Source of the DNA: Solirubrum puertoriconensis
GTDB lineage: Bacteria; Bacteroidota; Bacteroidia; Cytophagales; Hymenobacteraceae
Direction of reading: 5' to 3'
Length of the DNA stretch: 64,000 nt
Assembly (NCBI RefSeq): GCF_001483135.1
Contig: NZ_LNAL01000003.1
Coordinates: 682,001-746,000, forward strand
Of the stretch, positions 1-64,000 are shown piece by piece. Each line of letters opens with the position of its first letter. Position 1 is the stretch's first letter. The translations under genes and the position numbers were made by a program. The notes under the pieces are model-generated. The model searched no databases and had not been told where the DNA came from. It worked only from the letters and a program-made list of their open reading frames with translations.

Positions 1-796
1 GAATTTGCGTGAAGCAAGGGTTAGCGAAGTAAGCACCCTTCTTGTGCGCACGCCAAGCGGCGGTAGCGTTCGAGTACTTAGCGTTGGTGCTCAGGTAGAA
101 CACGTTGCCGTAGCCACCGGTGCAGAGCAATACGGCATGGGCCGCGTGCGTCTGGATTTCGCCGGTAATCAGGTTACGCGTTACGATGCCGCGGGCCTGG
201 CCGTCAACCACCACCAGATCGAGCATCTCGGTGCGGGTGTACATCTTCACCTTACCGTAAGCAATCTGGCGCGAGAGGGCCGAGTAAGCACCTAGCAGCA
301 ACTGCTGGCCGGTTTGACCGCGGGCGTAGAACGTACGGCTAACCTGCGCACCACCGAACGAGCGGTTGGCCAGCAATCCGCCGTACTCGCGAGCGAAGGG
401 TACGCCCTGTGCCACGCATTGGTCAATGATGTTTACCGATACCTGGGCCAAACGGTACACGTTGGCTTCGCGGGCGCGGTAGTCACCACCTTTAATCGTA
501 TCGTAGAACAGACGGTACACCGAATCGCCGTCGTTCTGGTAGTTTTTAGCAGCGTTGATACCACCCTGCGCAGCGATGGAGTGTGCGCGACGGGGCGAAT
601 CGTGGAAGGAAAAGGCTTTTACGTTGTAGCCCAGCTCGGCTAACGAAGCCGCCGCCGAAGCACCGGCCAGGCCCGTGCCCACCACAATTACGTCGTACTT
701 CCGCTTGTTAGCCGGGTTTACGAGCTTAACGTTGAACTTGTGCTTCTCCCACTTTTCGGCCAACGGGCCTTCAGGAATCTTAGCTTCCAGCTTCAT
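1..796 (-). CDS. sdhA: Succinate dehydrogenase/fumarate reductase flavoprotein subunit, partial (3' end outside window)
   Basis: Reading the minus strand from the ATG at 796 gives about 265 open codons with no stop before the window edge. The N-terminus carries the FAD-binding glycine motif [10 protein letters not shown] near residues 38-47, and the [11 protein letters not shown] segment near residue 70, where the family attaches FAD covalently to histidine (His72 here). Later text such as [19 protein letters not shown] is typical of SdhA/FrdA. It is the catalytic subunit of complex II and converts succinate to fumarate. It lies 14 bp downstream of the cytochrome b subunit gene, in the usual Bacteroidota order cytochrome b, flavoprotein, iron-sulfur protein, so sdhB is expected just outside the window. 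The visible part is intact. Confidence 0.95.
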
Positions 797-810
797 AGGG
801 TGCAAACTGG

Positions 811-1488
811 TTAGAATTGCTTAAAGAAGAAGTACAACGGCATCGCAGCAAAACCAGCGCACACGATAATCGAGAAAGCGTAGCCGAAGTACGTAATAAA
901 GGGCGTGTACTTGCGGTGGGTCAGGCCCAACGTCTGGAACGCGCTCTTGAAGCCGTGGATGAGGTGGAAGGCCAATGCGGCCTGCGCCAGCACATACAGC
1001 ACTACATACCACCACTGCTGAAACGAGCTAACCACCAGCGTGTAGAGGTCGTCGTTGTTATTGATGTCCGGATCCAGCTCGCCAAAGCGGGCCCGGTAGA
1101 AGAAGTTGTAGAGGTGTACCAGCAGGAAGATCAGGATGATGGTGCCGAGCAGGCCCATGTTGCGCGACTGCCAGGGCGAGTTCTGCTCGTTGTGGTTTAC
1201 TGCGTAGCCCTGAGCCCCACGCGCCGTTTTGTTGCGACTGGTGAGCATAATGGACTCGTAGATGTGAAAAACAAAGCCTGCTACCAGCACCCATTCAATG
1301 GTGCGGATGACAGGATTTGTACCCATAAAGTGGGAGTAGATATTAAAAGCAGCGCCGCCGTCGTTCTTAAACAACTGGAGGTTGCCGACTAGGTGAATCA
1401 CCAGAAAGGAACACAGGAACAGACCCGTGACAGCCATGATGATTTTACGGCCGATACTGCTGGAAAGCGCTTTGCTAAGCCAACTCAT
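811..1488 (-). CDS. sdhC: Succinate dehydrogenase cytochrome b subunit
   Basis: 225 residues starting [15 protein letters not shown], the characteristic start of the Bacteroidota/epsilon-type cytochrome b558 subunit of complex II. About five hydrophobic membrane segments are visible (for example near residues 15-35, 60-80, 110-130, 160-180 and 200-220). Histidines in or near these segments (HLVGN near 32, FHIYE near 75, HLIHGF near 175) are candidates for binding two b hemes. It anchors the flavoprotein and iron-sulfur subunits to the inner membrane and passes electrons to menaquinone. It is the first gene of the sdh operon, with sdhA 14 bp downstream. A good promoter match lies 40-70 bp upstream. 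Confidence 0.93.
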
Positions 1489-1528
1489 ACGTGAACGAAA
1501 GGGTGAGAAAATGGTCGGTTGTACCGGC

Positions 1529-1560
1529 CAAAGGTACTGCCCGACCCGGTACGAAACAAT
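1529..1560 (-). promoter_or_regulatory. Candidate sigma-ABfr-type promoter of the sdh operon
   Basis: On the minus strand TACCTTTG (1529-1536) matches the Bacteroidota -7 consensus TAnnTTTG. A TTG (1557-1559) lies 20 bases upstream, the usual spacing for the -33 element. The site is 41 bp before the sdhC start codon. Confidence 0.5.
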
Positions 1561-1736
1561 GTAACATAAGCCGAACAGTAATTAAGCCCGGAAGCAAGCC
1601 AAACCACCTAGGCTGTTGAACCGTTACACACATCGTACTATTGTACTAACCCATCCTGTACGGTTTTTGTTAGGTTGCTCGAGGATTTTTCCTCATCTTC
1701 TTTGCCACTCTCCGACGCTTCTAACGGATTAGCTAT

Positions 1737-4660: not shown

Positions 4661-4661
4661 T

Positions 4662-23728: not shown

Positions 23729-25060
23729 ATGTTTGCCTTGGTCGACTGCAACAACTTTTATGTGTCGTGCGAGCGGGTGTTTCAGCCGCGCTACGAGGGC
23801 GTGCCCGTGGTGGTGCTCAGCAACAACGACGGCTGCCTGATTTCGCGCTCCGACGAAGCCAAGGCCCTAGGGCTGAAAATGGGCGACGCGTTTCACCTGG
23901 TAAAACCCACGCTGCTGGAGCACTCCGTGAAGGTTTTCTCCTCTAACTACGCCCTCTACGGCGACATGAGCCGGCGCGTGGTGCGTGTGCTCTGCGACTT
24001 TGCCCCGGAGGTGGAGGTTTATTCCATCGACGAGGCTTTTCTGAACCTAGGCGGCATGCGCTACTGGGCGCCCGAGGGGCTGGAGGACTACGCCGGCCGC
24101 ATTAGAGAAACGGTGAAACAGCACGTGGGCATACCCACCGCCGTGGGCGTGGCGCCCACCAAAGTGCTAGCCAAAATGGCCAACCGCTTGGCCCGCAAAC
24201 GAACCGAACAGGAGCGGGTGTGGGTGCTGGGCAATGATGCGCAACGGCTCGAAGCCCTAGAGCGCACCGCCGTAGAAGACATATGGGGCATAGGCCACCG
24301 CTACGCCCGCAAGCTGCACGAGCAAAACATTTGCACCGCCGCTGCCTTGGCGGCCAAGCCCCGCGCTTGGGTGCGGCAGCACCTGGGCGGCGTGGTGGGC
24401 GAGCGGCTGTGGTACGAGCTGCATGGCCAGGCTTGCCTGGAGCTGGAAGCCCGCCTGCCCGACGACGAAGCCACCCTCGGACCTAGGGCCACGCACCGCC
24501 AGAGTGCCGCTTGTACGCGCTCCTTCACGCGCCCCATTGCCGACGAGCAAAAGCTGCGCGAGGCCGTGGCTACGTTTGCGGCCCGCGCCGCCGAAAAGCT
24601 CCGGGCCGAAGGCCTCGCTGCGCACCTGCTCACGGTGTTGCTCGGCACCGATCGGTTTTCCCCGAAGCCGGGCCCCTCTACCTTCAGCACCACCATTGCA
24701 CTGCCCAGCGCTACCAACGACACCGGCCAGCTAACGCACTACGCCCTAGGTGCCCTGAAGCGCCTGCGCCGGGCGGGCACCTGCTACACCCGAGCCGGAG
24801 TGGTGTGCGCCGGCCTCGAGCCCGAAGGCCGGGTGCAACTAGGTTTGTTTGAGGCCCCCGAGGCCCGCCAGAAAAGCAAGCAGCTAATGGAGGCGCTGGA
24901 TACGCTGAACAAGCGCTTCGGCCGCGCCAAAGTGCGCTACGCCGCAGCCGGCACCAAGCCGCTATCATGGCAGGGGCGCTGCGACTACGTATCGCCGCAG
25001 TTTACTACCAACTGGGAGCAGCTGTGGCGCATCGGCGACGACGCGAGCCGCAAAGTCTAG
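23729..25060 (+). CDS. umuC: UmuC-type Y-family DNA polymerase V catalytic subunit
   Basis: 443 residues. The palm begins MFALVDCNNFYVSCERVF (metal-binding aspartate at position 6), and the second catalytic site is VYSIDEAFLNLGG (near 100-112). Fingers residues include SNNDGCLISRSDEAK. The thumb helix-hairpin-helix includes EDIWGIGHRYARKLHEQ near 183-199, and the little-finger domain extends to about 350. A C-terminal segment (DALNKRFGRAKVRYAAAG-type, here LDTLNKRFGRAKVRYAA) is typical of UmuC. It performs translesion synthesis with UmuD' and RecA. It forms a two-gene operon with umuD and converges with the subtilase gene seven bp after its stop. Confidence 0.96.
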   Translation: MFALVDCNNFYVSCERVFQPRYEGVPVVVLSNNDGCLISRSDEAKALGLKMGDAFHLVKPTLLEHSVKVFSSNYALYGDMSRRVVRVLCDFAPEVEVYSIDEAFLNLGGMRYWAPEGLEDYAGRIRETVKQHVGIPTAVGVAPTKVLAKMANRLARKRTEQERVWVLGNDAQRLEALERTAVEDIWGIGHRYARKLHEQNICTAAALAAKPRAWVRQHLGGVVGERLWYELHGQACLELEARLPDDEATLGPRATHRQSAACTRSFTRPIADEQKLREAVATFAARAAEKLRAEGLAAHLLTVLLGTDRFSPKPGPSTFSTTIALPSATNDTGQLTHYALGALKRLRRAGTCYTRAGVVCAGLEPEGRVQLGLFEAPEARQKSKQLMEALDTLNKRFGRAKVRYAAAGTKPLSWQGRCDYVSPQFTTNWEQLWRIGDDASRKV

Positions 25061-25066: not shown

Positions 25067-27889
25067 TTACGGCTGCAGCACCACCCGCCGCGTAAGTACC
25101 TCGCCGCCGGCCGATTGCCACTGCAGCAAGTACACGCCCGCGGGCAAAGCCCGCACCTGCAACTCGGTGGCGGCTTGCGTTACGCGCCACGTCCGCACCT
25201 GTTGCCCTAGGCTGTTGCGTAGCATAAGCACCGAGCCAGCCGCCGCATTGCCGGGCAACTGCACCTGCAAGCTCCCTTGGCTTGGGTTCGGGAATACCGC
25301 CCAACTAGCTTGCTGTGCCACCGTGGGGCGTGTGGGCAACACCTGGGCGTAGCGTAACTGGGCCGCATCGGCGGCGGCTTGCAGCTCGGCCAGGGTAGGA
25401 GCGGCCAGCACAGCAAAGGCTACGGTAACGGAGTCGTTGGGGGCCAGGCGACCTAGGGCAGCACCCAGCACCTGCGATACGTCGGAGCCGGTGGGCGTGC
25501 CTGCGGTGCGTTGCTTGCGGCCCGAGCTAAGCGTCAGGAATTTTTCGGCCGACGAAAACCCGTCGCGCAGGCTTACCGCGGCTGTAGTTGGGGCAGCGTT
25601 ATCGATGGCGTAGTACGAGGCCGTGGTAGGAGCCGCGGCTCCTAGCAGCCGCACGCCCGCAAACAACCTAGGGTTAAGTGCATCGTGCACGTAGCCGAGG
25701 GCGCGGGCCGAATCGTACGCGGCCAGGTTGCGGCCGGCTTCGGCGGGCAGGTCCCAGTCCATAAACAAGCCGGCGTGCAGGGTTTGCCACGTATCGGGCG
25801 AGAGGTTGCGCAAAGTGTACTCCACAATGGCGTAGTCGCGGTCGGCAGCGGCGGGACCGGGCCAGGCCATGGCCCGCTGGCGCACGCGCACCCCTACAGT
25901 GCGGCCGTTGCTTTGGCTCGGCAACGAATCCTGAAACGCCCCGGTAGCGCGCTGCATGGCGGCCGTAGCCGCTTGCATGGCTATGGTTTGCTGGCTGAAA
26001 AAGTCTTGATCGACGCGGTTACTGGGTACGCTGCGCAGGCGGTCGGCTACTTTGGTAGGGCCCGTGGCCACCAGCAAGCCGCCTTCGCTGAGCAATACCG
26101 GCGAGTTGCGGTAAGTAATGCTGGCGCCCACTTCGGTGTTGCCGCTGTCGTAGCCCAGGTTGCCCCGGCTGGTAACGGTAAGGTGCAGGTTGTTGGCCGT
26201 CAGCACCACGTAATCGGGGTTCAGCTCCAGCGTTACGTACTCATCGGCCACAAAGCCGTTGGGCGCGGTAAAGCGGCAGCGCAGCACGGCGCGGGTGCTG
26301 GCCGGCGTGTTGGGTGCAATGCTCAGGCGCACCGGCACGGTGGCCGTGGCATTGGTGCCCAGCGCACCTAGGGTTGCCGCGCTGCCGCTGCTAATGCTAA
26401 GCTGCGGCGTAAGCGAGCTGATGCTGAGCGTGAGGCCCTGCACCGGCTGCAGTAAATTTTGAATGGTAAGCGCCAGGCGGGCTGTGTCGCCGGCCAACAG
26501 CCGCGGTTTGCTTAGGCTGTGGCCTAGCACCCGCACGGCCGTCTGGTTGGCACCTAGGGCCAAGGCGCGGTGCACATTCAGGCGACCTGTGCCCAACCGG
26601 CCGACTAACGCGGTATTTCTCGGAATGCTGTAAATGTCGTCGGCGGAGCGGCGCAGCACGGCCACTACCTGCGCGGCCGAAAGCTGCGGATACAGGCTGC
26701 GCACCAGCCCCGCTGCCCCGGCCACCAGCGGCGCCGCAAACGACGAACCGCCCACCGGTGCGTAAGTGTCTTCGGCATCGTAGAGGGTGGTAAGTATGCG
26801 GCGGCCCGGGGCGCTCAGGCCCACGTGGTAGCTGTAGGTAATGGTTTGCTCGTCGAAGTCCGATAGCCCCGCTACCGACAGTACGTGGTCGTACGAAGCC
26901 GGGTAGAAGTCCAGCTCGGCATTGGTGTTGCCCGCGGCGGCTACCAACACAGCCCCACGGTTTACGGCCGCGTAGGTGCACACATCCTGCTCGAACTGCG
27001 ACTTGCCGCCCACGCCGCCCCATGAAATATTAATGACTTTGCAGCCGTGGTCGGCGGCGTACACAATGCCTTCATAACCGCCAAAAGCACCCTCGGGCGT
27101 TTGCGGGTACACTTTGATGTGCATGAACCGGCACTTAAAACCCACGCCTGCTATGCCCTTGCCGTTGTCGGCGGCGGCGGCGGCGGCACCGGTTACCAGC
27201 GTGCCGTGGCTAAACAAGCCACTGCGCGGTACCGAGGCCGTAGGGTCGTTGTCGTTGTCGCCGGTGTCCCAGCCCCGGAAATTATCGATATACCCGTCGC
27301 GGTCGTCGTCGATGCCGTTGATGGGATCGGCGTAGTTCAGCTTGGCCTGCCCGCGCAAATCCTGGTGGTTGAACAGTACGCCGCTGTCGGTAATGCCAAT
27401 TACTACGGAAGTATCACCCTTACTCAGGTTCCAGGCCGAATAGGCCTTAATGAGCTTTAGGTGGTACTGCCCATCGGCCTTGGTTGAGTCGGCCAGCGGG
27501 TCGTTGGGTTGATACAAGGGCGCGCGTTGGTACAGCGGCTCTACGTACTCCACGGCGCCGGTGCTCAGCAGTGCCTGGCGCACCTTGGCAAACGGTAGCG
27601 CGGTGGGGTAGCTGAACTCATAAATGGTACGCAGCTCCACGCTGCCGGGTAAGTCGGCCGAAGGGGGCACTGCCCGCGGAAACTTCTGCAGCACGCGCTT
27701 GGCTGCCAGCTGCCCTAGGGCTTGCTCTACGTAAACCAACGGGGCACCTTCGCGCAGCTTAAACACGGCCGTACCGGGGAGTGTAGTCGAGGCTTCGGCC
27801 GCAACAACCGGCGCAGTTTGCGCTGCAGCTGCCCCCGAAAGCAGCAGCCAGCTATACGTGAAAAACAGCAGGCGTAAAAGCTGTTTCAT
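25067..27889 (-). CDS. Secreted subtilase (S8 peptidase) with T9SS type A sorting domain
   Basis: 940 residues. A signal peptide (LLRLLFFTYSWLLLSGAAAA) is followed by a propeptide-like region to about 140. The catalytic triad reads IGITDSGVLFNHQDL (Asp near 168), SHGTLVTGAAAAA (His near 230) and GGSSFAAPLVAGAAG (Ser near 381). The segment DDDRDGYIDNFRGWD is the usual calcium-binding insertion. After about 450 come beta-rich modules, and the C-terminus ends with FPNPSQGSLQVQLPG and VYLLQWQSAGGEVLTRRVVL, a Por-type sorting domain for type IX secretion. It should be an extracellular endopeptidase. The gene is monocistronic and nearly abuts umuC (convergent). Confidence 0.93.
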   Translation of the reverse strand: MKQLLRLLFFTYSWLLLSGAAAAQTAPVVAAEASTTLPGTAVFKLREGAPLVYVEQALGQLAAKRVLQKFPRAVPPSADLPGSVELRTIYEFSYPTALPFAKVRQALLSTGAVEYVEPLYQRAPLYQPNDPLADSTKADGQYHLKLIKAYSAWNLSKGDTSVVIGITDSGVLFNHQDLRGQAKLNYADPINGIDDDRDGYIDNFRGWDTGDNDNDPTASVPRSGLFSHGTLVTGAAAAAADNGKGIAGVGFKCRFMHIKVYPQTPEGAFGGYEGIVYAADHGCKVINISWGGVGGKSQFEQDVCTYAAVNRGAVLVAAAGNTNAELDFYPASYDHVLSVAGLSDFDEQTITYSYHVGLSAPGRRILTTLYDAEDTYAPVGGSSFAAPLVAGAAGLVRSLYPQLSAAQVVAVLRRSADDIYSIPRNTALVGRLGTGRLNVHRALALGANQTAVRVLGHSLSKPRLLAGDTARLALTIQNLLQPVQGLTLSISSLTPQLSISSGSAATLGALGTNATATVPVRLSIAPNTPASTRAVLRCRFTAPNGFVADEYVTLELNPDYVVLTANNLHLTVTSRGNLGYDSGNTEVGASITYRNSPVLLSEGGLLVATGPTKVADRLRSVPSNRVDQDFFSQQTIAMQAATAAMQRATGAFQDSLPSQSNGRTVGVRVRQRAMAWPGPAAADRDYAIVEYTLRNLSPDTWQTLHAGLFMDWDLPAEAGRNLAAYDSARALGYVHDALNPRLFAGVRLLGAAAPTTASYYAIDNAAPTTAAVSLRDGFSSAEKFLTLSSGRKQRTAGTPTGSDVSQVLGAALGRLAPNDSVTVAFAVLAAPTLAELQAAADAAQLRYAQVLPTRPTVAQQASWAVFPNPSQGSLQVQLPGNAAAGSVLMLRNSLGQQVRTWRVTQAATELQVRALPAGVYLLQWQSAGGEVLTRRVVLQP

Positions 27890-39843: not shown

Positions 39844-42800
39844 TTACTTCACCAAGCTGAAGCGGTTGGTTTTGCTTTGCTCGCCGGTGCTGACGCGGTA
39901 GAAGTACGTGCCCGTGGGCAACTGCTCGCCGTGCAGCGTCACCGATTTCACTTCGCCGGCTTGCACCTCGGCATCGTAGAGCTTGGCCACGCGGGCACCT
40001 AGGGCGTTGTACACCTCAACCACAGCCCGGCCCGATTTCGCTACCGAGAACGTAATGGTAGCATCGGCGCTGGCGGGGTTGGGATACAGCGAGGTGCTCA
40101 GGCCGCTTTCGGGTTTCAGGCTCTTCGGTGCTGGTGCAGTACCAGAAAGCGAAGCTGTGGTGCTAACTGCCGACATGGCGTATACTGGCGAGGCAAGTAC
40201 GCGGCAGTTATCGAATAGCTCATTTACGGCCGTGATGGCCGCGTTCACGTCGGCAAAGCTTGGGCGGCCACTACCGGCGGTGCCACCCAGCATCTCTTCG
40301 CCCAGCTTCAGCAGGTTGGCAACAGTAGCACCGCCACCCGAAGTGTTCAGGTAATTAATCACCGAACTCGGGATGGTACGAGTAATACCCGTCAGATCCG
40401 TTGGATCAGCAACCCCACCGGCGCCGCACGTGGTGGCGCGGTACGTTGTCATGGAGCTTGTAAGCATCAATGAGCCTAAGTTGCTGCTGCCGAAAGGTTG
40501 GTTACTCAGGTAAGCATCGAGGCGCAGGTTCAGCTCCAGGGCCATTACTTGCCCAATGAGTACGTTGTTGAATTTGTCGTTTTTCAGCAACGAGCCCGGT
40601 AAGCTGCAGCCCGAAACCTGGCCTACGTTTGGCAACGTACCGGCGGTACCCCCTGCGGGCATTGCCTTCAGAATACAAGCAGCCAAAGTTGCTGCCTGAG
40701 CAGCAGTATTGGAGTAATTGATCCGGTTTGGCCCGATGCCAATCGTTAGGTCGCCGCCATTCCGAAGCAGAGTGGTAATAAGGTCGACGCGAATCGGCCC
40801 GTTGCAAACCCGGCCATTAGAGTTGCCCCAGCCACCTTGCGTGAGCGTGCAGAATTTGTCGCAGGTGTTTACCGTGATGGTAGCCGGCGAAGAATTGACC
40901 GTAGCGCACGAACCGCTTTGGACTACCGCTCTGAATGCGGTGGTTTGCGTGAGGTTGCTGTAGGCGTAGGAGGTGAGCCCAGCCGTGTTGGCAATAGCAT
41001 TGTACGCGCCGCCGTTCACCGACGACTCCCATCGCACCACTGCACCCGTTTGCCCCGACAAGGTGAGCGGGCCACTGTTGCTGCCCGCGCATACCGATCG
41101 GCCACCGGCAACAGAGCCACCCACCGAAGCCGGCGTGATGGTGACAGTTGCAGGCGAAGAGTTAGCCGCTGCACACGAACCGCTCTGCACTACCGCCCTA
41201 AAGGAGGTTGTCTGGGTTAGGTTGCTGTAGGAGTAAGAGGTAAGGCCAGCGGTATTGGCAATGGCGCCATAAGCCCCGCCGTTCACCGAGGCCTCCCAAC
41301 GCACCACTGTGCCAGTTTGCCCAGAGAGCGTGAGTGTGCCATTGTTGGTGCCGGCACACGCTGCTCCGCCGCCTGCCACTGAGCCGCCTACCGAAGCCGG
41401 CTCAACGGTGATGGTTATTGGATCGGAAGTGCTGGCAGCGCATTGGCCACCCGATACAATGCGGCGGAACTGAGTGGTTGTCGTAAGCGCACCTGGAGCG
41501 TAGTTCTGGCTATTGGTTCCTGGTATGTTTGCGAAATCAGCATCGCCCGCGGCTTTCTGCTGCCACTGATAAGTGTAGCCGCCACTACCGCCGGTTGGTT
41601 GCGAGCCGGTGAGGCTACTGGGCATTGAGCCGGTGCAAATGGTTTGGGCGCTTCCGATAATGTTGTTACCAATGTTTTGTTCAACAGTAATGGTAGCGGG
41701 CGAGGAGTTGGCGCTTGCGCACACGCCGCTCTGCACCACTGCCCTGAAGGCGGTGGTTTGCGTGAGGTTGCTGTAGGCGTAGGAAGTGAGGCCGGCGGTA
41801 TTGGGAATGGCATTGTACGCGCCACCGTTCACTGAGGCCTCCCACCGCACCACTGTACCAGTTTGCCCCGACAAAGTGAGCGTGCCGCCGTTGTTGCCCG
41901 AGCACACCGTGCCGCTGCTCGCTACCGAACCGCCTACTGAGGTAGGATCGACACTGAGGATGGCCGCATCGGAATTTACAGCAGTACAAGCCCCACTTTG
42001 CAGCACGGCTCTATACCGGTAGCCATTCATCGAGGTAGTAATGCTCGAAATAGCCAGGGTGGTGGAGGTAACCCCGCTGTAGGGCGCAGCATTGCTTAGG
42101 TTGTTCCAGCTGCCGCCATTATCGGTGCTTAGCTGCCATTGCACCGTGGGCGCAGGTACGCCACCTGTGGAGGCTACGGAGAAGCTAGCCGACTCGCCGG
42201 CGCATTTTTGTTGGGCAGTGGGCTGGGTAGTAATGGTAGGCGGCGTGCAGCACGCCACTACGTTTACCTGCTTAGTAACGGTCTCTTTCTCGGTGCTGAG
42301 CACAACCGAGGTAGGTACGCCGTTCTCATCAAGCTCGTACTGGGTGTCGGTTATTTCCAGCTCAACGTTATACAGCCCAGCCGCAGTGTAGGTATGGCTG
42401 GGGTCCTCTTGCGTGCTGGTGCTTCCGTCGCCGAACGACCACTTGTAGGTATAGTTGCCGTATCCGCCAGTGGTGCTGTTGTTGAAGCTTACTGTGCTAA
42501 AAAGGTTGCCGGAAACGCAGTCAGCAGAGAAAGTGAAGTCCGGAATAAGTGGCGTAACAATGCGAAGGTTGCCTACCTGCCGGCATTTAGAGGGGGTTGC
42601 TTGAGTGCAAGTCAGGCTACAAACTTGTTCGCTGGCACTACCCCAACCCACAAAAGTGTCAGTAAGGGTGAGGTCAGTACCGCAGGTCCACTTAATTTTC
42701 TGCGAGTAGGTGTAGGTAGTGGATGTTTGCTTGGGTAAGCTGCCCGGAAAGCAGATGGCTAGGTAGTTGCCATTAATACGACCCGAAATGAAAATACCGT

Positions 42801-43152
42801 TCCGGTCGCTGCTGGTGTTGTTTCTGAACGTGATGCTGAGGTAAGCATCAACAGTACCGCCTCCGCTACACGCGCTGGATGTAATAGGATTACCGTTGGC
42901 GTCGGAGAGGTAGGCCTTGGTAATCGTGAAGTCGTTGGAGGTACAACTTCCGTAGCAGCTGGTTAGGTCGGTGTTGGCCGGATTGCCTTGTTGCCCCAAC
43001 GTGGGAACGGCCAGGACAAGCACGAGGCCAACCAATGCCAGCAGGGAGCGAAGCCAACCGGACTTCAGCGAATGTAAATTAATTGAAGCCGCCACCCGTG
43101 GGGTGGTCTTTCGCTCAGCAAAGCTGTTTGCGGTACAGTAAGGTAGCTTCAT
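39844..43152 (-). CDS. Large secreted protein with PKD domain, Ig-like repeats and T9SS type A sorting domain
   Basis: 1102 residues from ATG 43152 (MKLPYC); the first Met of the longer reading is an unlikely TTG/GTG. After a signal-like segment (LVGLVLVLAVPTLGQ near 41-55) comes a beta-rich region to about 200, a PKD domain with YKWSFGDGSTSTQEDPSHTY near 235-254, and an Ig-like module with two cysteines. Three near-identical Ig-like modules follow (see repeat entry), with a related divergent module between the first and second. Residues about 750-1010 are a unique domain (TQGGWGNSNGRVCNGPIRVD). The C-terminus YPNPASADATITFSVAKSG to FSLVK is a Por-type sorting domain. It is most likely a surface adhesin or structural protein. 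Confidence 0.88.
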   Translation of the reverse strand: MKLPYCTANSFAERKTTPRVAASINLHSLKSGWLRSLLALVGLVLVLAVPTLGQQGNPANTDLTSCYGSCTSNDFTITKAYLSDANGNPITSSACSGGGTVDAYLSITFRNNTSSDRNGIFISGRINGNYLAICFPGSLPKQTSTTYTYSQKIKWTCGTDLTLTDTFVGWGSASEQVCSLTCTQATPSKCRQVGNLRIVTPLIPDFTFSADCVSGNLFSTVSFNNSTTGGYGNYTYKWSFGDGSTSTQEDPSHTYTAAGLYNVELEITDTQYELDENGVPTSVVLSTEKETVTKQVNVVACCTPPTITTQPTAQQKCAGESASFSVASTGGVPAPTVQWQLSTDNGGSWNNLSNAAPYSGVTSTTLAISSITTSMNGYRYRAVLQSGACTAVNSDAAILSVDPTSVGGSVASSGTVCSGNNGGTLTLSGQTGTVVRWEASVNGGAYNAIPNTAGLTSYAYSNLTQTTAFRAVVQSGVCASANSSPATITVEQNIGNNIIGSAQTICTGSMPSSLTGSQPTGGSGGYTYQWQQKAAGDADFANIPGTNSQNYAPGALTTTTQFRRIVSGGQCAASTSDPITITVEPASVGGSVAGGGAACAGTNNGTLTLSGQTGTVVRWEASVNGGAYGAIANTAGLTSYSYSNLTQTTSFRAVVQSGSCAAANSSPATVTITPASVGGSVAGGRSVCAGSNSGPLTLSGQTGAVVRWESSVNGGAYNAIANTAGLTSYAYSNLTQTTAFRAVVQSGSCATVNSSPATITVNTCDKFCTLTQGGWGNSNGRVCNGPIRVDLITTLLRNGGDLTIGIGPNRINYSNTAAQAATLAACILKAMPAGGTAGTLPNVGQVSGCSLPGSLLKNDKFNNVLIGQVMALELNLRLDAYLSNQPFGSSNLGSLMLTSSMTTYRATTCGAGGVADPTDLTGITRTIPSSVINYLNTSGGGATVANLLKLGEEMLGGTAGSGRPSFADVNAAITAVNELFDNCRVLASPVYAMSAVSTTASLSGTAPAPKSLKPESGLSTSLYPNPASADATITFSVAKSGRAVVEVYNALGARVAKLYDAEVQAGEVKSVTLHGEQLPTGTYFYRVSTGEQSKTNRFSLVK
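40865..41945 (-). repeat. Three near-identical Ig-like modules inside the T9SS protein gene
   Basis: Copies at about 41690-41945, 41140-41400 and 40865-41130 each encode roughly 85 residues of the form SVGGSVA...CAG..NGTLTLSGQTG, VVRWE(A/S)SVNGGAYNAI, NTAGLTSY.YSNLTQTT.F and RAVVQSG.CA.ANSSPAT. The first and second copies are separated by a more divergent module (41410-41680). DNA identity between copies is very high by eye, which suggests recent duplication or gene conversion. Confidence 0.85.
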
Positions 43153-43778
43153 GGGTTGTTGGTTGTTAGGTGTGTGAGGGGTAGCAGCAAGTGCCAACCA
43201 GCAGCTGTGCGCACAGCTGGGCTACTAGCACTAGGTGCCTGTAAGGGGCAGAAGGGGGAGCTAGAGCCAGGAAGGGCTCAAGGCAAGAGGCGTGGCTTGG
43301 CGCAACAAGCCCGATTAGGCGCACATAAGCTTGCGGGCGTGGCTGGCCAGCAAACTGGGCAACTGTGCAATGGCAACAGCTTGCCAAGCCACACACCGCA
43401 GCGTTGGTATGTAGCCGACCGGAAAGAATTCGGGCAGGTAGCAGGCGGGCTAATGCAGCCCTGGCGCACAGGTAAAAGGTTGCTTCACTCGATCAACATC
43501 CAGCAGTAGTCAGCCAAATGCGGGCTGCGAACAGTGGCAGAAGCCCGTCTGCAGGCAGAGCCTGCAGGCGGCGGCGGTGTTAATTAAATTAAGGCGTTAC
43601 CGCCACGAATAGCAAGCGTTATTGTAAATATTTGACAAAAAAATATTTGATAAATATCATTAATGTATTCCGCAACTCTTTAATAGACAGCTAGGCCACT
43701 TCACCGAGCATCTGAGCTCAAGTTTTAGGCAATTGCTAGGTTCATGTGTCCGTCGATGGGTAAATTGATTGCCGAAAC
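43153..43778. other. 626-bp intergenic region between divergent genes
   Basis: The first 350 bp are GC-rich without a convincing ORF. A short hairpin CTGCAGGC/GCCTGCAG lies at 43549-43567. From 43575 to 43690 the DNA turns AT-rich with A- and T-runs and several TATTTG words (for example near 43630 and 43646), a likely promoter zone for the kinase gene at 43779, but no exact TTTG-N19-TAnnTTTG match was found. Nothing else is recognised. Confidence 0.5.
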
Positions 43779-45479
43779 ATGAGGCGTTTATTACACATAA
43801 CATTGCTCTGGAGCTTACTGCTGGCAGTGCTACAGCCTGTTTGGGCGCAACCCGCAGTGCGCGACCTTACCCAGTGGTATGCCCAGGCAGACAATGACCC
43901 AGCTTGGCGTACGGCAGCGCCCGGCAAAATGGGCAAAGCGCTGGTGTTTGATGCGCACGCACCCACAGCAGCACCCGCGTTGGGCAATCAGTACTGGCTG
44001 CGCACCTCAGTTGCCGTTGATGCCCCCTCCGAGCTCCTGGGTTTGGTAATCTGGGGCCTACACTCTGCCACCGAGGTTTACTGGGATGGCGCCCTGGTAG
44101 CGCGCAACGGGCGCCTAGGTGCCAGCCTAGCCCAAGAGGTACCCGGCACCTGGAAGCACGTAGTGGAGCTACCCCGCAGCCTAACTCAGCCGGGCCAGCA
44201 CACCTTGGCTATCCGCGTATCCGATTGGCATTTTGCCCAGCGGCCATTGCAGCCGCGCATTACGTTTGGGCCCGCGCATGTGCTCGAGCAGCAGGATTTC
44301 CGCTTCGCGGCCAGCTCGGTGTTTATCATCGGGGCGCTGATTACGGCGGGCGTGTTTTGCTTAGTGCTGTATTTCGGCTCGTCGCGGCGAGCGTCGTACT
44401 TGTATTTGGCCCTGTACTGCTTGTCGCACACGGTTAAGGTAGCGTTTAAGCCGCTGTACTTCTTCGATGCGGTGGGCTTTGGTACGCACTACGTGTACAG
44501 TGCCATTGTGCACGGCGCAGTTGTAGCTGGCGGCGTGTTTCTGATGCTGTTTTTGCTGCACGAATTTGCGGTGCCGCGGGCGCGCCTGCTCACGTGGCTG
44601 TACCTGGGCTTTGCTGCCCTAGGTTACTGGCTGCTGCTCGAAGGCCGCTTTCTGGTGCCTACCACGGTGGCCGCGTTTGCGGTGGCGCTGTATGCCGTGT
44701 ACTGCAAGCAGGAGGGCAGTTGGCTGGCGTTGGCCGGTGTGGCGGGCTTTGCGGTGTGCACGTACCTGGGCTTCCTGAGCTTGCTGAATTTGGGCTACTT
44801 CCTGGGCATCCTGTTTTTCATTGTGTGTACTACGCTCAGCATCGGGCGGCAGCTGGCCCGGCAGCAGAAGCTGCGGCAAGAGGCCATGCTGCGCTCGGCC
44901 AGGCTCGAGAACCAGCTGCTGCGCAAGAACATTCAGCCGCACTTTCTCTTCAACACGCTCACCTCGTTGCAGGAACTCATCGACCAAAACCCGACGCAGG
45001 CTACGCAGCTCATTGATGCCCTGGCCGAGGAATTCCGGATGATTTCGAGCATTGCCGAAGAGAAGCTTATTCCGATTGAAGACGAGCTGAAAATTTGCCA
45101 GACGCACCTGCGCATCATGGGCTTCCGGCGCGAGGCGGAGTTCTGCCTCGAAACCCGCGGCCTTTCCGGCGACGAACGCGTACCGCCGGCCACCTTCCAC
45201 ACCCTCATTGAAAACGGCCTTACGCACGGCTACGGCAGCCGCGGGCAAGGCCGGTTTGTGCTCACCAAAGAGGTGCTCGATGGCGGCGTGCGCTACGAGC
45301 TGTTCAACGACAGCGACGCTGCGGCCCTAGGTGCCGTGCGGCCCGAGGGCACAGGCTCGCGCTACGTAAAGGCGCGGCTCGAAGAGTCTTTCCCCGGGTG
45401 CTGGCAAATGCAGTCGGCGCCGGTGGCCGATGGCTGGCGCGTGGTGATTGATATTTTCGACCGGAAAGTAACCGCCTAA
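43779..45479 (+). CDS. LytS-type sensor histidine kinase with extracellular sensing domain
   Basis: 566 residues. A signal/first helix (LLHITLLWSLLLAVLQPVWA) is followed by an extracellular domain of about 140 residues with a galactose-binding-like beta sandwich (WLRTSVAVDAPSELLGLVIW and YWDGALVARNGRLG). Seven membrane segments follow from about 175 to 375, as in 7TMR-DISM sensors. The kinase part has the phosphoacceptor motif IQPHFLFNTLTSLQELID near 386-403. The ATPase region includes PPATFHTLIENGLTHG near 468-483. It probably senses an extracellular ligand and phosphorylates the LytTR regulator whose gene starts 5 bp downstream. Confidence 0.92.
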   Translation: MRRLLHITLLWSLLLAVLQPVWAQPAVRDLTQWYAQADNDPAWRTAAPGKMGKALVFDAHAPTAAPALGNQYWLRTSVAVDAPSELLGLVIWGLHSATEVYWDGALVARNGRLGASLAQEVPGTWKHVVELPRSLTQPGQHTLAIRVSDWHFAQRPLQPRITFGPAHVLEQQDFRFAASSVFIIGALITAGVFCLVLYFGSSRRASYLYLALYCLSHTVKVAFKPLYFFDAVGFGTHYVYSAIVHGAVVAGGVFLMLFLLHEFAVPRARLLTWLYLGFAALGYWLLLEGRFLVPTTVAAFAVALYAVYCKQEGSWLALAGVAGFAVCTYLGFLSLLNLGYFLGILFFIVCTTLSIGRQLARQQKLRQEAMLRSARLENQLLRKNIQPHFLFNTLTSLQELIDQNPTQATQLIDALAEEFRMISSIAEEKLIPIEDELKICQTHLRIMGFRREAEFCLETRGLSGDERVPPATFHTLIENGLTHGYGSRGQGRFVLTKEVLDGGVRYELFNDSDAAALGAVRPEGTGSRYVKARLEESFPGCWQMQSAPVADGWRVVIDIFDRKVTA

Positions 45480-59412: not shown

Positions 59413-59434
59413 GTGAGGCGGAAGCCAACCGGAA

Positions 59435-60277: not shown

Positions 60278-60314
60278 AAAAAAGCCTCGTGCCGGCAGGC
60301 ACAAGGCTTTTTTT
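60278..60314 (-). terminator. Terminator of the fasciclin gene
   Basis: AAGCCTCGTGCC and GGCACAAGGCTT form a stem with one mismatch; A6 before the left arm gives the U-tract on the minus strand and T7 after the right arm gives it on the plus strand. Confidence 0.85.
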
Positions 60315-60331
60315 ACAAAGCAAGCCGGGTG

Positions 60332-60991
60332 TTAGCGCGTAGGCATCAGTACGGTGTCAACTACGTGCGTTACGCCGTTGCTCGATACCACATTCGGAAT
60401 AGAGACCGTAGCCATGCCGCCCTTGGCATCGCGCAGCATTACCGAGCTGCCTTTTTTCATCACCGTCAGGGTTTCGCCTTCCACGGTGGTCAGCTTCTGG
60501 CCGTCTTTCAAATCGGAAGCCAGGTAGCGACCCGGCACCACGTGGTAGGTAAGAATGGTTGTCAGTTGCTCCTTGTTGGCGGGCTCAACCAACGTTTGCA
60601 CAGTGCCCGAGGGCAGTTTGTCGAAAGCGGCATTAGTAGGCGCAAACACCGTGAACGGACCCGTGCCCTGCAATGTAGGCACCAAGCCGGCAGCTTTCAC
60701 GGCCGTTACAAGGGTCGTGTGCTCGGAGGAGTTCAGCGCATTGGCCACAATGTCTTTATCTGGCGTCATCATCGCGCCGCCTACCATTACACCGCCCGAG
60801 GCCGAGGTAGCATCCATCGAGGAGCCCGTCGACATGCTGCCCCCCGTGGTGCTGCCGTTCATCGACGATTTCTCCTTCGTTTTCATTTTGTCTTCCTTGG
60901 CCTTGGCCTTCGTTTGGGCCAGAGCCGAGGTGCTAAAACCGGTGCCAACGGCTAGTAACAAAGCAAGTGCGGCAAAGCTGTGCTTAAGCAT
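60332..60991 (-). CDS. Secreted fasciclin-domain protein
   Basis: 219 residues. Signal peptide: FAALALLLAVGTGFSTSALAQ. Residues 26-75 are low-complexity and basic/Ser/Met-rich (KAKEDKMKTKEKSSMNGSTT). From about 76 on there is one FAS1 domain: KDIVANALNSSEHTTLVTAV, GTGPFTVFAPTNAAFDKLPS (the conserved FAPTNAAF), LTTILTYHVVPGRYLASDLK and SNGVTHVVDTVLMP. FAS1 domains mediate adhesion in secreted proteins. Its low-complexity linker is shared with the next gene downstream. Intergenic 425 bp upstream separate it from the beta-barrel gene. Confidence 0.9.
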   Translation of the reverse strand: MLKHSFAALALLLAVGTGFSTSALAQTKAKAKEDKMKTKEKSSMNGSTTGGSMSTGSSMDATSASGGVMVGGAMMTPDKDIVANALNSSEHTTLVTAVKAAGLVPTLQGTGPFTVFAPTNAAFDKLPSGTVQTLVEPANKEQLTTILTYHVVPGRYLASDLKDGQKLTTVEGETLTVMKKGSSVMLRDAKGGMATVSIPNVVSSNGVTHVVDTVLMPTR

Positions 60992-61416
60992 GGCGTTAGG
61001 GGTTTGGTGTGGTTGAAGAATGAGTTAATGCCGGACTTACGGCGTTCATCTTCAACCGGATTGGTGCCGCATGGTTTAGAAAGCAACGCTAACAATCTCA
61101 TGCTGTGTTTGGTACCGCTGGGCTTCGGGCCATCATAGCACCTAGGCGCACAGCTTCGTTAGGTGCCGGCTGGATGACATGAGAAGGAGGCGAGCAGCCA
61201 CGTATCTTATCCGGGTATGAGTTGGATGGATAAGTGAGCCGACCCATTTATTGACCGGTGCCAGTCGTAGTCCTAGGTGAAATCCACTACGTTTTCAGGC
61301 ACGGCCTGAAGGCGCGCCCGGGTGCTTTGGGTAGAAGCCCGATAGCGTTTAAGAAAACAAAACAGCCACGACAAGCGTGGCTGTTTTGTTGGTGCAAAAG
61401 AGACTACAGCGCAAGG
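60992..61416. other. Intergenic region with one terminator
   Basis: About 425 bp. It contains the terminator of the beta-barrel gene (61356-61391) and CCTAGG sites at 61140 and 61272. No ORF with recognisable content on either strand. Confidence 0.5.
61350..61391 (-). terminator. Terminator of the outer-membrane beta-barrel gene
   Basis: Perfect 15-bp stem (61356-61370 with 61376-61390) around loop ACAAG, with A/T-rich ends on both sides. Confidence 0.85.
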
Positions 61417-62082
61417 TTATTTCGTGAGGTACACGCCTAGCGTGAGCTCCCATGTGCGGTTGCGGCGGTAGGTATTGTCGTCGCCGGAGGGCAGCACGTT
61501 GCTCAGGCCTAGGCCGTAGTTGGCGCCCACAAACACGCGGTCGATTTCCAGCAGACCCAAGAAGTTCAGGCCAGCGTCTACCGTCTTGTAATCATCGTCG
61601 TCGTTGTCGCCGATGTTCAGCTCGCCAGTACCGGTAAGGGTGGTGCCCAGCAAGCGGGCCGTGCCCTCACGCTCGGCGTGTACCAACGCACCTACGTACG
61701 GACCAGCGCCCAGCACCAAGCCAGCCGGCCCAGCCTCGATGCGGTAGGTAAGCGAAACGGGCACCGTAACATAGGAAAGCCTGTCCTTGTAGCTTGCCGA
61801 CTGACCTAGGGCCGAAATGGTATACTCCATGCCCTTGCGCGAAAACAGCACCTCGGGCCGCACTGCCAGACCACCCGCCAGCGGCAACTCGGCCACCAAG
61901 CCGGCATGAAAGCCGTTGATGTTTTCGTTGGTGATTTTAGTACCGCCAAAGGCCTGCTCCTGCGTGGCAATGTTTAGACCGCCGCGAATGCCAAAGCGAG
62001 ATTCAGAGGATTGCGCCTGCGCCGACGCGGCAACGCCAGCCAGGCATACACCGAGCAGCAGGGCTTTAATGCTTGCTTGCAT
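61417..62082 (-). CDS. Outer-membrane beta-barrel protein (PorT-like)
   Basis: 221 residues from ATG 62082. Signal peptide: KALLLGVCLAGVAASAQAQ. The mature part starts SRFGIRGGLNIATQEQAFGG, the usual first strand of Bacteroidota eight-stranded barrels. Repeated strands such as SYVTVPVSLTYRIEAGPAGL and LVLGAGPYVGALVHAEREGT follow, ending with an aromatic-final strand YRRNRTWELTLGVYLTK. It is an OmpA-like or PorT-family surface barrel of unknown ligand. A -7-like TAGCTTTG (62152-62159, minus) lies 70 bp upstream without a good -33 partner. Confidence 0.87.
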   Translation of the reverse strand: MQASIKALLLGVCLAGVAASAQAQSSESRFGIRGGLNIATQEQAFGGTKITNENINGFHAGLVAELPLAGGLAVRPEVLFSRKGMEYTISALGQSASYKDRLSYVTVPVSLTYRIEAGPAGLVLGAGPYVGALVHAEREGTARLLGTTLTGTGELNIGDNDDDDYKTVDAGLNFLGLLEIDRVFVGANYGLGLSNVLPSGDDNTYRRNRTWELTLGVYLTK

Positions 62083-62353
62083 AGTGAGAGAAGGGGTGTG
62101 GTGGAGTGAATAAGGGTGGTAAGCAAATGCCTCTCTACTGACGAGGTGGCGCAAAGCTACGAGTCAGCCATTATTCAGCCACTGGCAACAGCAAGGCGGC
62201 CGAATTGCGCGGCCAACGCGTTCGGCTTATGTGCCATGATGGTACCTGCTCCCGCGGTGACAACAGGCTCGGCAGAAGTTGCTTTGCATTACAACCTTGC
62301 CACCCTCGGGGTGCGTACCGCTTTGGGCGTGGCTTAAGCAACGGGGCTGTGTA

Positions 62354-62755
62354 TCACTGCTCAACCGCCCAGCTTCGAGCTTCCGACAAGTCGGTATAAA
62401 TCCGCAGCTCGAAAGCGAATTCGTTTATCACGGACTGGTAAGTGTTGTTGATCAGGAGCTGGTTGAGCGGATCAGTGGCTTCAACGCGGGCAAATTTGGT
62501 GATGCCGTATGCTTCCAACAGCGGTAGCGCGGTTCGGGCAATCCACTCAATATCCGCCGGGCGAACCGGGCCCAATTGCCGGTCGTCGGCAATCCAGCTG
62601 GTAACGCGGTTGCGGCGGGCAACTTCGAGCGCGTCAACTACGGCTTGGCGTAAGTCGGCGCTGCTGATAAAACCAATCCATTGTGCCTCCAGGGCCCGAG
62701 TGGAGCCTTCGTGAAGATAGAGGTTCAGAAAACGGTAAGAGGCAACGAGGTGCAT
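62354..62755 (-). CDS. SpoIIAA/STAS-like small protein
   Basis: 133 residues, no signal or membrane segment. The pattern LYLHEGSTRALEAQWIGFIS, ADLRQAVVDALEVARRNRVT, SWIADDRQLGPVRPADIEWI and YGITKFARVEATDPLNQLLI follows the beta-alpha-beta order of STAS/SpoIIAA-like proteins (similar to DUF3478/STAS-like families). A paired phosphoacceptor serine is not obvious, so it may not be an anti-sigma antagonist. Function unknown; it stands alone. Confidence 0.6.
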   Translation of the reverse strand: MHLVASYRFLNLYLHEGSTRALEAQWIGFISSADLRQAVVDALEVARRNRVTSWIADDRQLGPVRPADIEWIARTALPLLEAYGITKFARVEATDPLNQLLINNTYQSVINEFAFELRIYTDLSEARSWAVEQ

Positions 62756-63120
62756 TCAATCGGGTTGTGGGGCTGCAGTGCTAACAACCCGTTAGTTCTT
62801 TCCTTGTTGGGTAGCTAACAACGCTGCAAGATAAATAAGACGTTACCACAGGACGCGTGGTATTGGCAAGGACCAGAGTAACGGGGCGCCGCTGCTGAGG
62901 TTCCGAACTATCGGAGCGCATACTGATGCACTAACCTCCGCAACACCAATTCCACGTGAGGGCAGCTTAGCTCAGCCTACGCAACGCGCTGCCGGACTAG
63001 CTGCAACTGTATATGCCAACAAACCGAATACGCGTTGGCGTGAAGCAAGCCCTTGTGTCAATGAACTAATTGCTAACTCCAAGCCACAAGCAGCGCCAGT
63101 AAAGCAGGCTCCTAAATAAA
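62756..63120. other. Intergenic region, nothing recognised
   Basis: About 365 bp before the tRNA-Arg terminator. No ORF, hairpin or promoter match was found beyond scattered short repeats. Confidence 0.4.
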
Positions 63121-63150
63121 CAAACCCGCTTCCGGTTGGAAGCGGGTTTG
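63121..63150 (-). terminator. Terminator of the tRNA-Arg gene
   Basis: A perfect 13-bp stem CAAACCCGCTTCC / GGAAGCGGGTTTG with loop GGTT, immediately downstream of the tRNA on the minus strand and followed by T-rich sequence there. Confidence 0.85.
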
Positions 63151-63155
63151 CAGTG

Positions 63156-63227
63156 TGGTCGCGCCAGGAATCGAACCTGGATCAAGAGCTTCGGAGACTC
63201 CTATACTATCCGTTGTACTACGCGACC
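63156..63227 (-). tRNA. tRNA-Arg (anticodon CCG)
   Basis: Reading the minus strand from 63227 gives a 72-nt cloverleaf: acceptor GGTCGCG paired with CGCGACC, a D-arm with AACGGATAG, an anticodon loop CTCCGAA with anticodon CCG, and the T-arm CCAGG-TTCGATT-CCTGG. The discriminator base is A; CCA is not encoded. It reads the codon CGG, common in this GC-rich genome. Confidence 0.93.
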
Positions 63228-63246
63228 AAAGAGCAGCTGTGGGCGG

Positions 63247-63277
63247 CAAAAGTAGGCAAAAATGCGGCGCTGGCAAA
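63247..63277 (-). promoter_or_regulatory. Sigma-ABfr-type promoter of the tRNA-Arg gene
   Basis: On the minus strand TTTG (63277-63274), a 19-base spacer and TACTTTTG (63254-63247) match the consensus TTTG-N19-TAnnTTTG exactly, 19 bp before the tRNA 5' end. Confidence 0.8.
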
Positions 63278-63372
63278 TCGGGTTGGCATTTTCCGCGAAA
63301 TTGGGGGCGTAACCTTCGGCCTGTTTCGGCAGTTAAGCCTAACGCACAACCCGAAACCTAAAGCTCATTTTT

Positions 63373-63858
63373 ATGGCCACATCTGAAAAAAAGACCTTGT
63401 ACACTGCTGAGGCCCAAGCTGTGGGCGGCCGCAGTGGCCACGTACGCTCTACAACCGGTGTAATCGACCTGGATATGTCGGTGCCCGAAGGCCTAGGTGG
63501 CAAGCGCGGCGCTACCAACCCCGAGGAGCTATTCGCCGCGGGCTACGCCTCGTGCTTTCAGCAGGCGCTACTGGTAATTGCGCAGCGTGCCGGCGACCGG
63601 CTCGACCCCGATACCTCGGTTAATTGCTCGGTTTCGCTTTTTCAGGAAGGCGAAGCGTACGGGCTTAGCGCAGTGCTGGACGTAGACCTGAAGAAGTTCG
63701 ACGACAACAAAACCGTTGAGATGGTGCGCCAAGCCCACCAGATTTGCCCGTACTCGGTGGGTACGCGCGGCAACATGGAGGTGGAGCTGCGCGTGAAAGG
63801 GCAGCCCCTGCCCGTGCAGGCCGAAGAAAACATTGGGGTAGCCCAAAACGGCAAGTAG
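63373..63858 (+). CDS. ohr: Organic hydroperoxide resistance protein, Ohr/OsmC family
   Basis: 161 residues, slightly longer than the family norm because of a short C-terminal tail. Reactive Cys61 in YASCFQQALL and resolving Cys125 in HQICPYSVGTRGN are present. KTLYTAEAQAVGGRSGHVRS and GATNPEELFAAGYASC are the normal family text. It reduces organic peroxides with lipoylated or dithiol partners in the cytosol. No OhrR gene is adjacent. A strong terminator follows. Confidence 0.94.
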   Translation: MATSEKKTLYTAEAQAVGGRSGHVRSTTGVIDLDMSVPEGLGGKRGATNPEELFAAGYASCFQQALLVIAQRAGDRLDPDTSVNCSVSLFQEGEAYGLSAVLDVDLKKFDDNKTVEMVRQAHQICPYSVGTRGNMEVELRVKGQPLPVQAEENIGVAQNGK

Positions 63859-63877
63859 CCTCATACAGCCAATCAAC

Positions 63878-63915
63878 AAAAAGCCCCGCCAGCATACTGG
63901 CGGGGCTTTTTGTTA
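63878..63915. terminator. Bidirectional terminator after ohr
   Basis: Perfect 15-bp stem (63878-63892 with 63897-63911) around loop CATA, with A run before and T run after; it also serves the convergent partial gene. Confidence 0.92.
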
Positions 63916-63934
63916 CTATAAGTACCTAGGGCAA

Positions 63935-64000
63935 TTACGCCTGCTGCTCTTGGCCAGCCAGTACTTCTTTTACTTTTTGGGCAGCGTCCTTCAGCAGTAC
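63935..64000 (-). CDS. C-terminal end of an unidentified gene, partial (5' end outside window)
   Basis: The minus strand reads VLLKDAAQKVKEVLAGQEQQ then A and a TAA at 63937-63935. The helical Lys/Gln/Val pattern is like the end of a small helical or YtxH-like protein, but 21 residues are too few to name a family. It faces ohr. Confidence 0.5.
   Translation of the reverse strand, partial: VLLKDAAQKVKEVLAGQEQQA

What the first reader, a model, noticed from the sequence alone, without database searches (positions are those of the whole stretch)
1..64000. CCTAGG is a highly iterated palindrome across the whole window
I count about 90 CCTAGG sites by eye in 64 kb; base composition alone predicts about 20, and CTAG words are usually depleted in bacteria. 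Sites are spread evenly, in genes and between them, on average every 700 bp. Flanking bases favour the longer forms GCACCTAGG and CCTAGGTGC. The behaviour recalls HIP1 (GCGATCGC) of cyanobacteria. Possible causes are a solitary methyltransferase, a DNA repair bias such as very short patch repair, or a chromosome-organising protein.
Basis: partly seen in the sequence, partly recalled or inferred. Interest (0 to 1): 0.7.

Follow-up and report, generated by a model that had tools for sequence, protein, structure and literature searches.

The report
Hymenobacter genome-wide CCTAGG self-recognition motif
Some Hymenobacter bacteria carry thousands of copies of a short, slightly lopsided DNA word built on CCTAGG that close relatives lack; it looks more like a self-identity tag of the kind competent bacteria use to recognise their own DNA than like the mark of a methylating enzyme, but what reads it is unknown.

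Summary
The count is right: 90 CCTAGG in the window, 20.5 expected from composition; 6212 in the 4.80-Mb genome against 136 for the reversed word. It is patchy: above 1000 in 13 of 204 family genomes, but 123-249 in five of the eight genomes of its genus; no other genome of a 395-genome phylum sample exceeds 734. The word is asymmetric: 597 of 672 sites have A before or T after CCTAGG, only 27 both. Three congeners share a weak second box 23-28 bp upstream. Sites arose by substitution and are kept better than comparable codons, though recent losses exceed gains. Other species use other dialects; four use about ASTGGCCTA. None of five methyltransferase families tracks the trait. Best reading: a DNA-uptake-sequence-like tag with dialects, in bacteria without the type IV pilus ATPase. 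The recognising protein was not found; a selected binding site or a Chi-like tag remains possible.

The parts
1..64000 (.). Genome-wide array of ACCTAGGS (CCTAGG core) sites; 90 in the window, starts at 1607, 4070, 4753, 4786, 5295, 5842, 6150, 7043, 7552, 8052, 8583, 10304, 10356, 10382, 10671, 11789, 12041, 12454, 12540, 12842, 15998, 16367, 17875, 18174, 18498, 18643, 19497, 20102, 22131, 22657, 23713, 23866, 24046, 24482, 24745, 25206, 25452, 25667, 26367, 26553, 27714, 28151, 30607, 31715, 32121, 32619, 35056, 35182, 36520, 36594, 37445, 38304, 38844, 39011, 39752, 39826, 39998, 44114, 44618, 45326, 46191, 46768, 47077, 47436, 47956, 47973, 48102, 48459, 49372, 49896, 50180, 51186, 52119, 52296, 54400, 54416, 54465, 55326, 56688, 57202, 57927, 58351, 59356, 60261, 61141, 61272, 61508, 61805, 63492, 63925
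   Evidence: positions; flanks: ACCTAGGV 39 on +, 33 on -
1607..1612 (.). First CCTAGG core of the window, as an example of a single site
39998..44119 (.). The two neighbouring sites that lie furthest apart in the window (starts 4116 bp apart) and the stretch between them

Best explanation
CCTAGG is the core of a directional DNA word (about CACCTAGGSC, with a weak box near GSYSCY 23-28 bp upstream of the A). It probably works like a DNA uptake sequence: a surface or translocation protein prefers DNA carrying the word, so that alleles with the word are taken up and recombined more often, which spreads and keeps it and marks self DNA. Shown: a DNA-level word, its asymmetry, the second box in three congeners, origin by substitution, slower loss than controls at codon third positions, dialects, patchy distribution, no common methyltransferase in the five families tested. 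Inferred: that most sites arose before the three rich congeners split, and that the force is transmission bias or selection on word-carrying alleles. Not shown: the recognising protein, DNA uptake, competence.
For: Asymmetric flank: 597 of 672 with A/T on at least one side, 27 with both. The second box, trained on coding sites of G004 and G007, peaks at the same offset in the non-coding sites of all three congeners (z 4.9 in G000, 9.2 in G004, 10.7 in G007); at places aligned to poor genomes two of its six positions (T at -26, C at -24) are less frequent. No clear strand preference along the contig: 235 vs 263 in 400 kb; none to transcription between tandem genes, 31 vs 25. Sites rise by substitution: 2 of 325 and 2 of 308 aligned places in poor congeners read CCTAGG, 1 or 2 mismatches being commonest and gaps found in 30 and 25. 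CTA third positions inside the word changed in 8, 14 and 29% against 29, 40 and 54% for other CTA codons on the three branches. On the own branch CCCAGG became CCTAGG at 9 of 36 places with the A/T flank and 3 of 44 without. Dialects share CCTA: ACCTAGGS, CCCTAGGG, ACCTAGST, about ASTGGCCTAS; four of 204 genomes hold 4482 or more STGGCCTA, the other 200 at most 910. Fewer pairs closer than 100 bp than a null that keeps ORF and non-ORF densities, in G000, G004 and G007. The longest desert in each of these three is AT-rich, and six of seven proteins examined from those of G000 and G004 are glycosyltransferases, aminotransferases or an ABC protein. Eight DUS dialects with a shared core are known in Neisseriaceae (PMC3630211, passages). 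A transposon screen for natural transformation in the Bacteroidota member Riemerella names ComEC, DprA, ComF, RecA and unknown proteins predicted in fimbria and outer membrane (PMC8459023, passages).
Against: PF00437, the ATPase of type IV pili, reaches its cut-off in 0 of 35 genomes, so the known sequence-specific uptake machine is missing. No uptake, competence or receptor gene was shown or looked for beyond that. The core is nearly palindromic, unlike known DUS. On all three recent branches single-step losses outnumber gains: 19 vs 13, 14 vs 1, 42 vs 2, so drive is weak or stopped now; in G007 non-coding sites are lost as fast as controls (14 of 49 vs 24.8%). The second box was not clear in motif-rich genomes of the other genus, where few sites were held, and four of its six positions have much the same base frequencies in the poor genomes. 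Inside ORFs the oriented word lies against the gene more often than with it (254 vs 164). Counts are more even than random in G000, G004, G007 and G072, not in the window itself (Fano 0.99 to 1.09), and sites cluster in G088, G104, G123, G137 and G129.
Confidence: 0.4

Rival explanations
1. Binding site of a chromosome-organising or DNA-processing protein of the host. Selection for a density of about one site per kb keeps the word; dialects follow changes of the protein.
For: Directional two-part footprint about 37 bp long, fewer close pairs than expected, retention at coding third positions.
Against: Presence in 13 of 204 genomes, with poor species in the same genus, is odd for a housekeeping function; recent net loss. 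No such protein was identified.
Confidence: 0.25
2. Chi-like self tag: a patchy helicase-nuclease (repair or defence) spares or recombines DNA that carries the word, so the word is selected in the host chromosome.
For: Density, directionality, dialects and patchiness fit a mobile system with varying specificity.
Against: No such system was identified or searched for; known Chi sites (recalled) are usually biased to one strand of replication, and here 235 vs 263 in 400 kb.
Confidence: 0.15
3. HIP1 model: an orphan methyltransferase for CCTAGG plus methylation-directed mismatch repair ratchets sites upward (Elhai 2015, PMC4390886; abstract, section 2.3 and the first part of section 3.4 read).
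For: Palindromic core, density near 1 per kb, spread by substitution.
Against: No family of five is common to the 13 rich genomes; the own genome holds one PF01555 gene on a 12.5-kb contig and no match to the other four; a 6-bp enzyme does not explain the A flank, the far box or the TGGCCTA dialect.
Confidence: 0.12
4. Mutational hot spot or codon effect: C to T mutation at CCCAGG, or preference for CTA GGN codons, builds the word without any function.
For: Recent single-step gains on the own branch are 27 of 28 transitions from CCCAGG/CCTGGG.
Against: Densest outside ORFs; CTA outside the word is not retained as well; gains are commoner with the A/T flank; a box 28 bp away is linked to the word; CCGAGG and CCTCGG are frequent at the aligned places of poor genomes.
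Confidence: 0.08

Closest known systems
DNA uptake sequences of Neisseriaceae (DUS) and uptake signal sequences of Pasteurellaceae (USS)
   Same: Short iterated word about once per kb, no clear strand preference, dialects between species around a shared core, scarce in the variable islands examined
   Different: Core nearly palindromic; type IV pilus ATPase absent; only 13 of 204 family genomes carry it; uptake never tested
HIP1 and alternate HIPs of cyanobacteria
   Same: Palindromic core at about 1 per kb, genome-wide, gained by substitution
   Different: No common methyltransferase in five families; asymmetric flanks; far second box; a non-palindromic dialect
Chi sites (recalled)
   Same: Directional, over-represented, species-specific words
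   Different: No strand bias seen in 400 kb; patchy within one genus; near-palindromic core

Membership tests
DUS/USS | Over-represented non-palindromic word, about one per kb | tested here: met
   6212 CCTAGG in 4.80 Mb; ACCTAGGV at 570 of 672 sites
DUS/USS | Dialects around a shared core | tested here: met
DUS/USS | Type IV pilus uptake machine | tested here: not met
   PF00437 over cut-off in 0 of 35 genomes (two weak matches under it); all 14 controls ring, 13 over cut-off
DUS/USS | Preferential uptake of word-bearing DNA by a specific receptor | not testable with these tools
   needs transformation or uptake assays
HIP1/alternate HIP | Highly iterated palindrome | tested here: inconclusive
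   hexamer core palindromic, octamer mostly not; CCCTAGGG is the commonest octamer in G072 and ACCTAGGT in the G123 piece and in H. cavernae
HIP1/alternate HIP | Matching DNA methyltransferase in the genome | tested here: not met
   five families, 37 genomes, none common to the 13 rich ones; PF02384 and others not tested; methylation itself not testable
Chi | Strand bias along the replichore | tested here: inconclusive
   235 vs 263 in 400 kb of one contig; origin not located
Restriction site under avoidance | Under-representation | tested here: not met
   observed over expected 7.6 in 400 kb

The most novel reading that the evidence does not exclude
A self-recognition sequence with species dialects (ACCTAGGS, CCCTAGGG, ACCTAGST, ASTGGCCTAS) exists in Hymenobacteraceae and is read by an unknown, pilus-independent system: a kind of sequence-guided DNA exchange for which my searches found no report from Bacteroidota.
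Probability: 0.35. Interest if true: 0.85.

Novelty: new variant of a known kind. Interest (0 to 1): 0.74.

Why it matters
Iterated words of this kind are known as HIP1 (purpose debated) and as uptake sequences in two families that use type IV pili. Here is a third setting, with rich and poor species in one genus, several dialects and long conserved synteny, so the force and the reader protein can be sought by comparing gene content and by simple transformation or pull-down tests. It would also bear on how Bacteroidota recognise or exchange DNA without type IV pili.

Tried and rejected
A fourth-order Markov model hides the excess. Methyltransferase census by five Pfam families: no common gene. 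An MmeI-type enzyme shared by G004 and G007 looked attractive because its cut distance (about 20 bp, recalled) resembles the box distance, but the domain is not found in the own genome, G041 or G137 and is found in 14 of 17 poor genomes. RNA-level or terminator role: no symmetric arms round the core; sites fold slightly more stably than random non-coding stretches (-17.6 vs -14.7 kcal/mol, not corrected for GC); no orientation between tandem genes; densest within 20 bp after stop codons (5.65/kb). Genes present in rich and absent in poor congeners inside the 400 kb: 59 of 328 ORFs, of which 25 at the left end probably reflect only the limits of the fetched poor stretches; ten of the 59 were given to Pfam, five without a match and five with domains that suggest no link. 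A transition-only mutational reading was weighed and given low odds, because transversion supply is small and partly non-synonymous (my argument, not tested). Second box in other dialects: too few sites to tell. ORFs were called by my own simple rule, not by a gene finder. Papers: none of the titles listed (CCTAGG with over-representation, 12 papers) or the 10 of 113 listed concerns this word in Hymenobacter; (Hymenobacter, overrepresented, hexamer) found no paper; others (5 papers; 3 papers) list no title on uptake sequences in Bacteroidetes or transformation of Hymenobacter (search listings only; the library holds open papers only). PMC1939737 (passages) tabulates GCCTAGGC as an under-represented palindrome of unknown effect in one genome and CCTAGG as a restriction site. 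PMC12616744: abstract and outline only.

Full report
Observation. The window holds 90 CCTAGG. Base composition predicts 20.5, first- and second-order models 15.4 and 13.4. The genome, 4,804,721 bases in 8 contigs, holds 6212, and the reversed control word GGATCC 136. In another 400 kb of the same contig it is the most over-represented palindromic hexamer, 582 against 76.6 expected at second order.

Distribution. In 204 genomes of the family, 13 hold more than 1000 CCTAGG, 8 hold 507 to 888 and 183 hold at most 468. Within the genus (8 genomes), own, G004 and G007 hold 6212, 5678 and 5325; G001, G002, G003, G005 and G006 hold 163, 123, 201, 220 and 249. Of 395 genomes drawn over the phylum, the own one is the only one above 734; that sample has only three other members of the family, all poor. 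H. cavernae has 18 sites in an 18.3-kb locus, 12 of them ACCTAGGT.

The word. In 464 kb of the own genome, 672 sites: ACCTAGGG 301, ACCTAGGC 213, ACCTAGGA 56, ACCTAGGT 27, others 75. So at least one flank is A (or T on the other side) in 597, both in 27. The same holds in G004 and G007: ACCTAGGT 9 of 567 and 9 of 481. In the three genomes, oriented sites share C at -1, C at +8 and a weak box at -28 to -23, about GSYSCY. Trained on coding sites of G004 and G007, the box peaks at offset -28 in the non-coding sites of all three (z 4.9, 9.2, 10.7), so it is not a codon effect. At places aligned to poor genomes, T at -26 is less frequent (0.19 and 0.18 in G001 and G002 against 0.26 in G000) and so is C at -24 (0.30 and 0.35 against 0.40 to 0.44 in the rich three); the other four positions differ little in raw frequency. 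This is only modest evidence that the box was acquired with the word.

Where sites lie. Density is 1.02/kb in ORFs and 4.08/kb outside them in the window, 1.26 and 2.89 in the other 400 kb; the contrast holds in G004, G007, G104, G072, G137 and G129 and is weak in G088 and G123. In ORFs, 446 of 486 sites sit as xxC CTA GGx and 40 as CCT AGG; the third phase would be a stop. Oriented sites in ORFs lie against the gene in 254 and with it in 164; between tandem genes it is 25 and 31. Non-coding density falls from 5.65/kb in the first 20 bp after stop codons to 1.5-1.9/kb beyond 100 bp, and the core shows no symmetric arms. Pairs closer than 100 bp are rarer than in a class-preserving null in G000, G004 and G007 (0.096, 0.102, 0.075 against 0.144, 0.148, 0.128; SD 0.013), while the coefficient of variation of spacing is near the null in G000 and G007 and above it in G004. 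Variance over mean in 5-kb bins is 0.79, 0.70 and 0.73 in these three and 0.51 in G072, 1.06 in the window, and 1.8 to 2.5 in G088, G104, G123, G137 and G129, where sites cluster. The longest desert is AT-rich in G000, G004 and G007 (GC 0.45, 0.47, 0.48), not in the window (0.57). Of seven proteins examined from those of G000 and G004, three are glycosyltransferases, two DegT-type aminotransferases, one an ABC protein and one has no match; of three from the longest G088 desert one is thioredoxin-like, one of the beta-lactamase family and one has no match.

Origin and upkeep. Anchors from the 400 kb were found in all seven congeners, and about 400 kb round them was taken from four. Counts: G000 582, G004 567, G007 481, G001 9, G002 9. 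At own sites, G001 reads CCTAGG at 2 of 325 and G002 at 2 of 308 aligned places, while control hexamers are identical in 27.5 and 31.2%; G004 keeps 333 of 481 (control 49.0%) and G007 295 of 508 (control 51.6%). Common aligned words in the poor genomes are CCTGGG, CCCAGG, CCGAGG, CCTCGG and CCCAGC. Where leucine is kept, CTA codons in the word are shared in 75% (G004) and 60% (G007), other CTA codons in 23 and 21%. Per branch (G000, G004, G007), the A of CTA changed in 15 of 187, 28 of 195 and 66 of 231 inside the word, and in 20 of 68, 36 of 89 and 53 of 98 outside it. Non-coding sites were lost in 7 of 42, 4 of 39 and 14 of 49, with controls at 25.8, 23.8 and 24.8%: no retention in G007. On the own branch CCCAGG became CCTAGG at 12 of 80 gap-free places, 9 of 36 with the A/T flank and 3 of 44 without; on the G004 and G007 branches this happened at 0 of 63 and 2 of 54. 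Against my reading, single-step losses outnumber gains on all three branches: 19 vs 13, 14 vs 1, 42 vs 2 (each change being counted there on two strands). I infer that most sites are older than the split of the three species and that present drive is weak, least so in the own lineage.

Dialects. G072 prefers CCCTAGGG (37 of 79), G123 ACCTAGGT (22 of 41) and, with more sequence, ACCTAGCT as well (40, against 38), G137 and G129 favour about ASTGGCCTAS, G088 and G104 are mixed. Counting STGGCCTA over the family gives G041 6585, G043 7059, G129 4482 and G137 6565, both strands together, and at most 910 in the other 200. These four are the lowest four of the 13 CCTAGG-rich genomes (2331, 2027, 1209, 2190). 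A shared CCTA with changing flanks recalls DUS dialects, which share CTG (PMC3630211, passages).

Cause. At E <= 0.001, of the 13 rich genomes PF00145 was found in 4, PF01555 in 5, PF02086 in 0, PF07669 in 11 and PF20473 in 10; of the 17 poor genomes searched, the last two in 16 and 14 (seven intermediate genomes were searched too). The own genome has one PF01555 gene on a 12.5-kb contig and no match to the others. So a common methyltransferase is unlikely, though untested families remain and a different enzyme in each lineage cannot be excluded. PF00437 is over its cut-off in 0 of 35 genomes; of 14 controls all ring, 13 over the cut-off. So a type IV pilus uptake machine is not there. In Riemerella, a competent Bacteroidota member, a transposon screen named ComEC, DprA, ComF, RecA and unknown proteins predicted in fimbria and outer membrane (PMC8459023, passages); I did not look for these genes here. 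I therefore commit, at 0.4, to a DNA-uptake-type self-recognition word read by an unknown protein. A selected protein-binding site and a Chi-like tag come next. What is firm is narrower: a directional, lineage-specific DNA word was driven up by something that acts at the DNA level, and base composition, codon choice or a plain mutation bias do not account for it well.

Noticed in passing
L129:3398-6958 (G004) and L148:950-4513 (G007): An MmeI-type single-chain restriction-modification enzyme (1186 aa in G004) shared by G004 and G007 (87% identity) in the fetched stretches; the whole-genome search finds no MmeI methyltransferase domain in the own genome.
   Followed up: yes
G023, G026, G082, G084, G113, G121 and others of genus g4: The control word GGATCC is almost absent (0 to 8 copies in 4-7 Mb) in 26 of 204 family genomes, while others hold hundreds (up to 645): strong, patchy avoidance, as restriction pressure would give.
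   Followed up: no
L033 (G000:C4): The only PF01555 methyltransferase found in the own genome lies on a 12.5-kb contig; the 3.7-kb piece held has GC 0.53 and one CCTAGG, so it may be recently acquired.
   Followed up: partly
window 23729-25060 and 25067-27889: A UmuC/DinB-type translesion polymerase next to a subtilase with a C-terminal secretion-system sorting domain.
   Followed up: no
G118, G061, G136, G134, G044, G087, G067, G126: Eight genomes with intermediate CCTAGG counts (507-888) may be lineages that lost the driver and are decaying, or weaker dialects.
   Followed up: no
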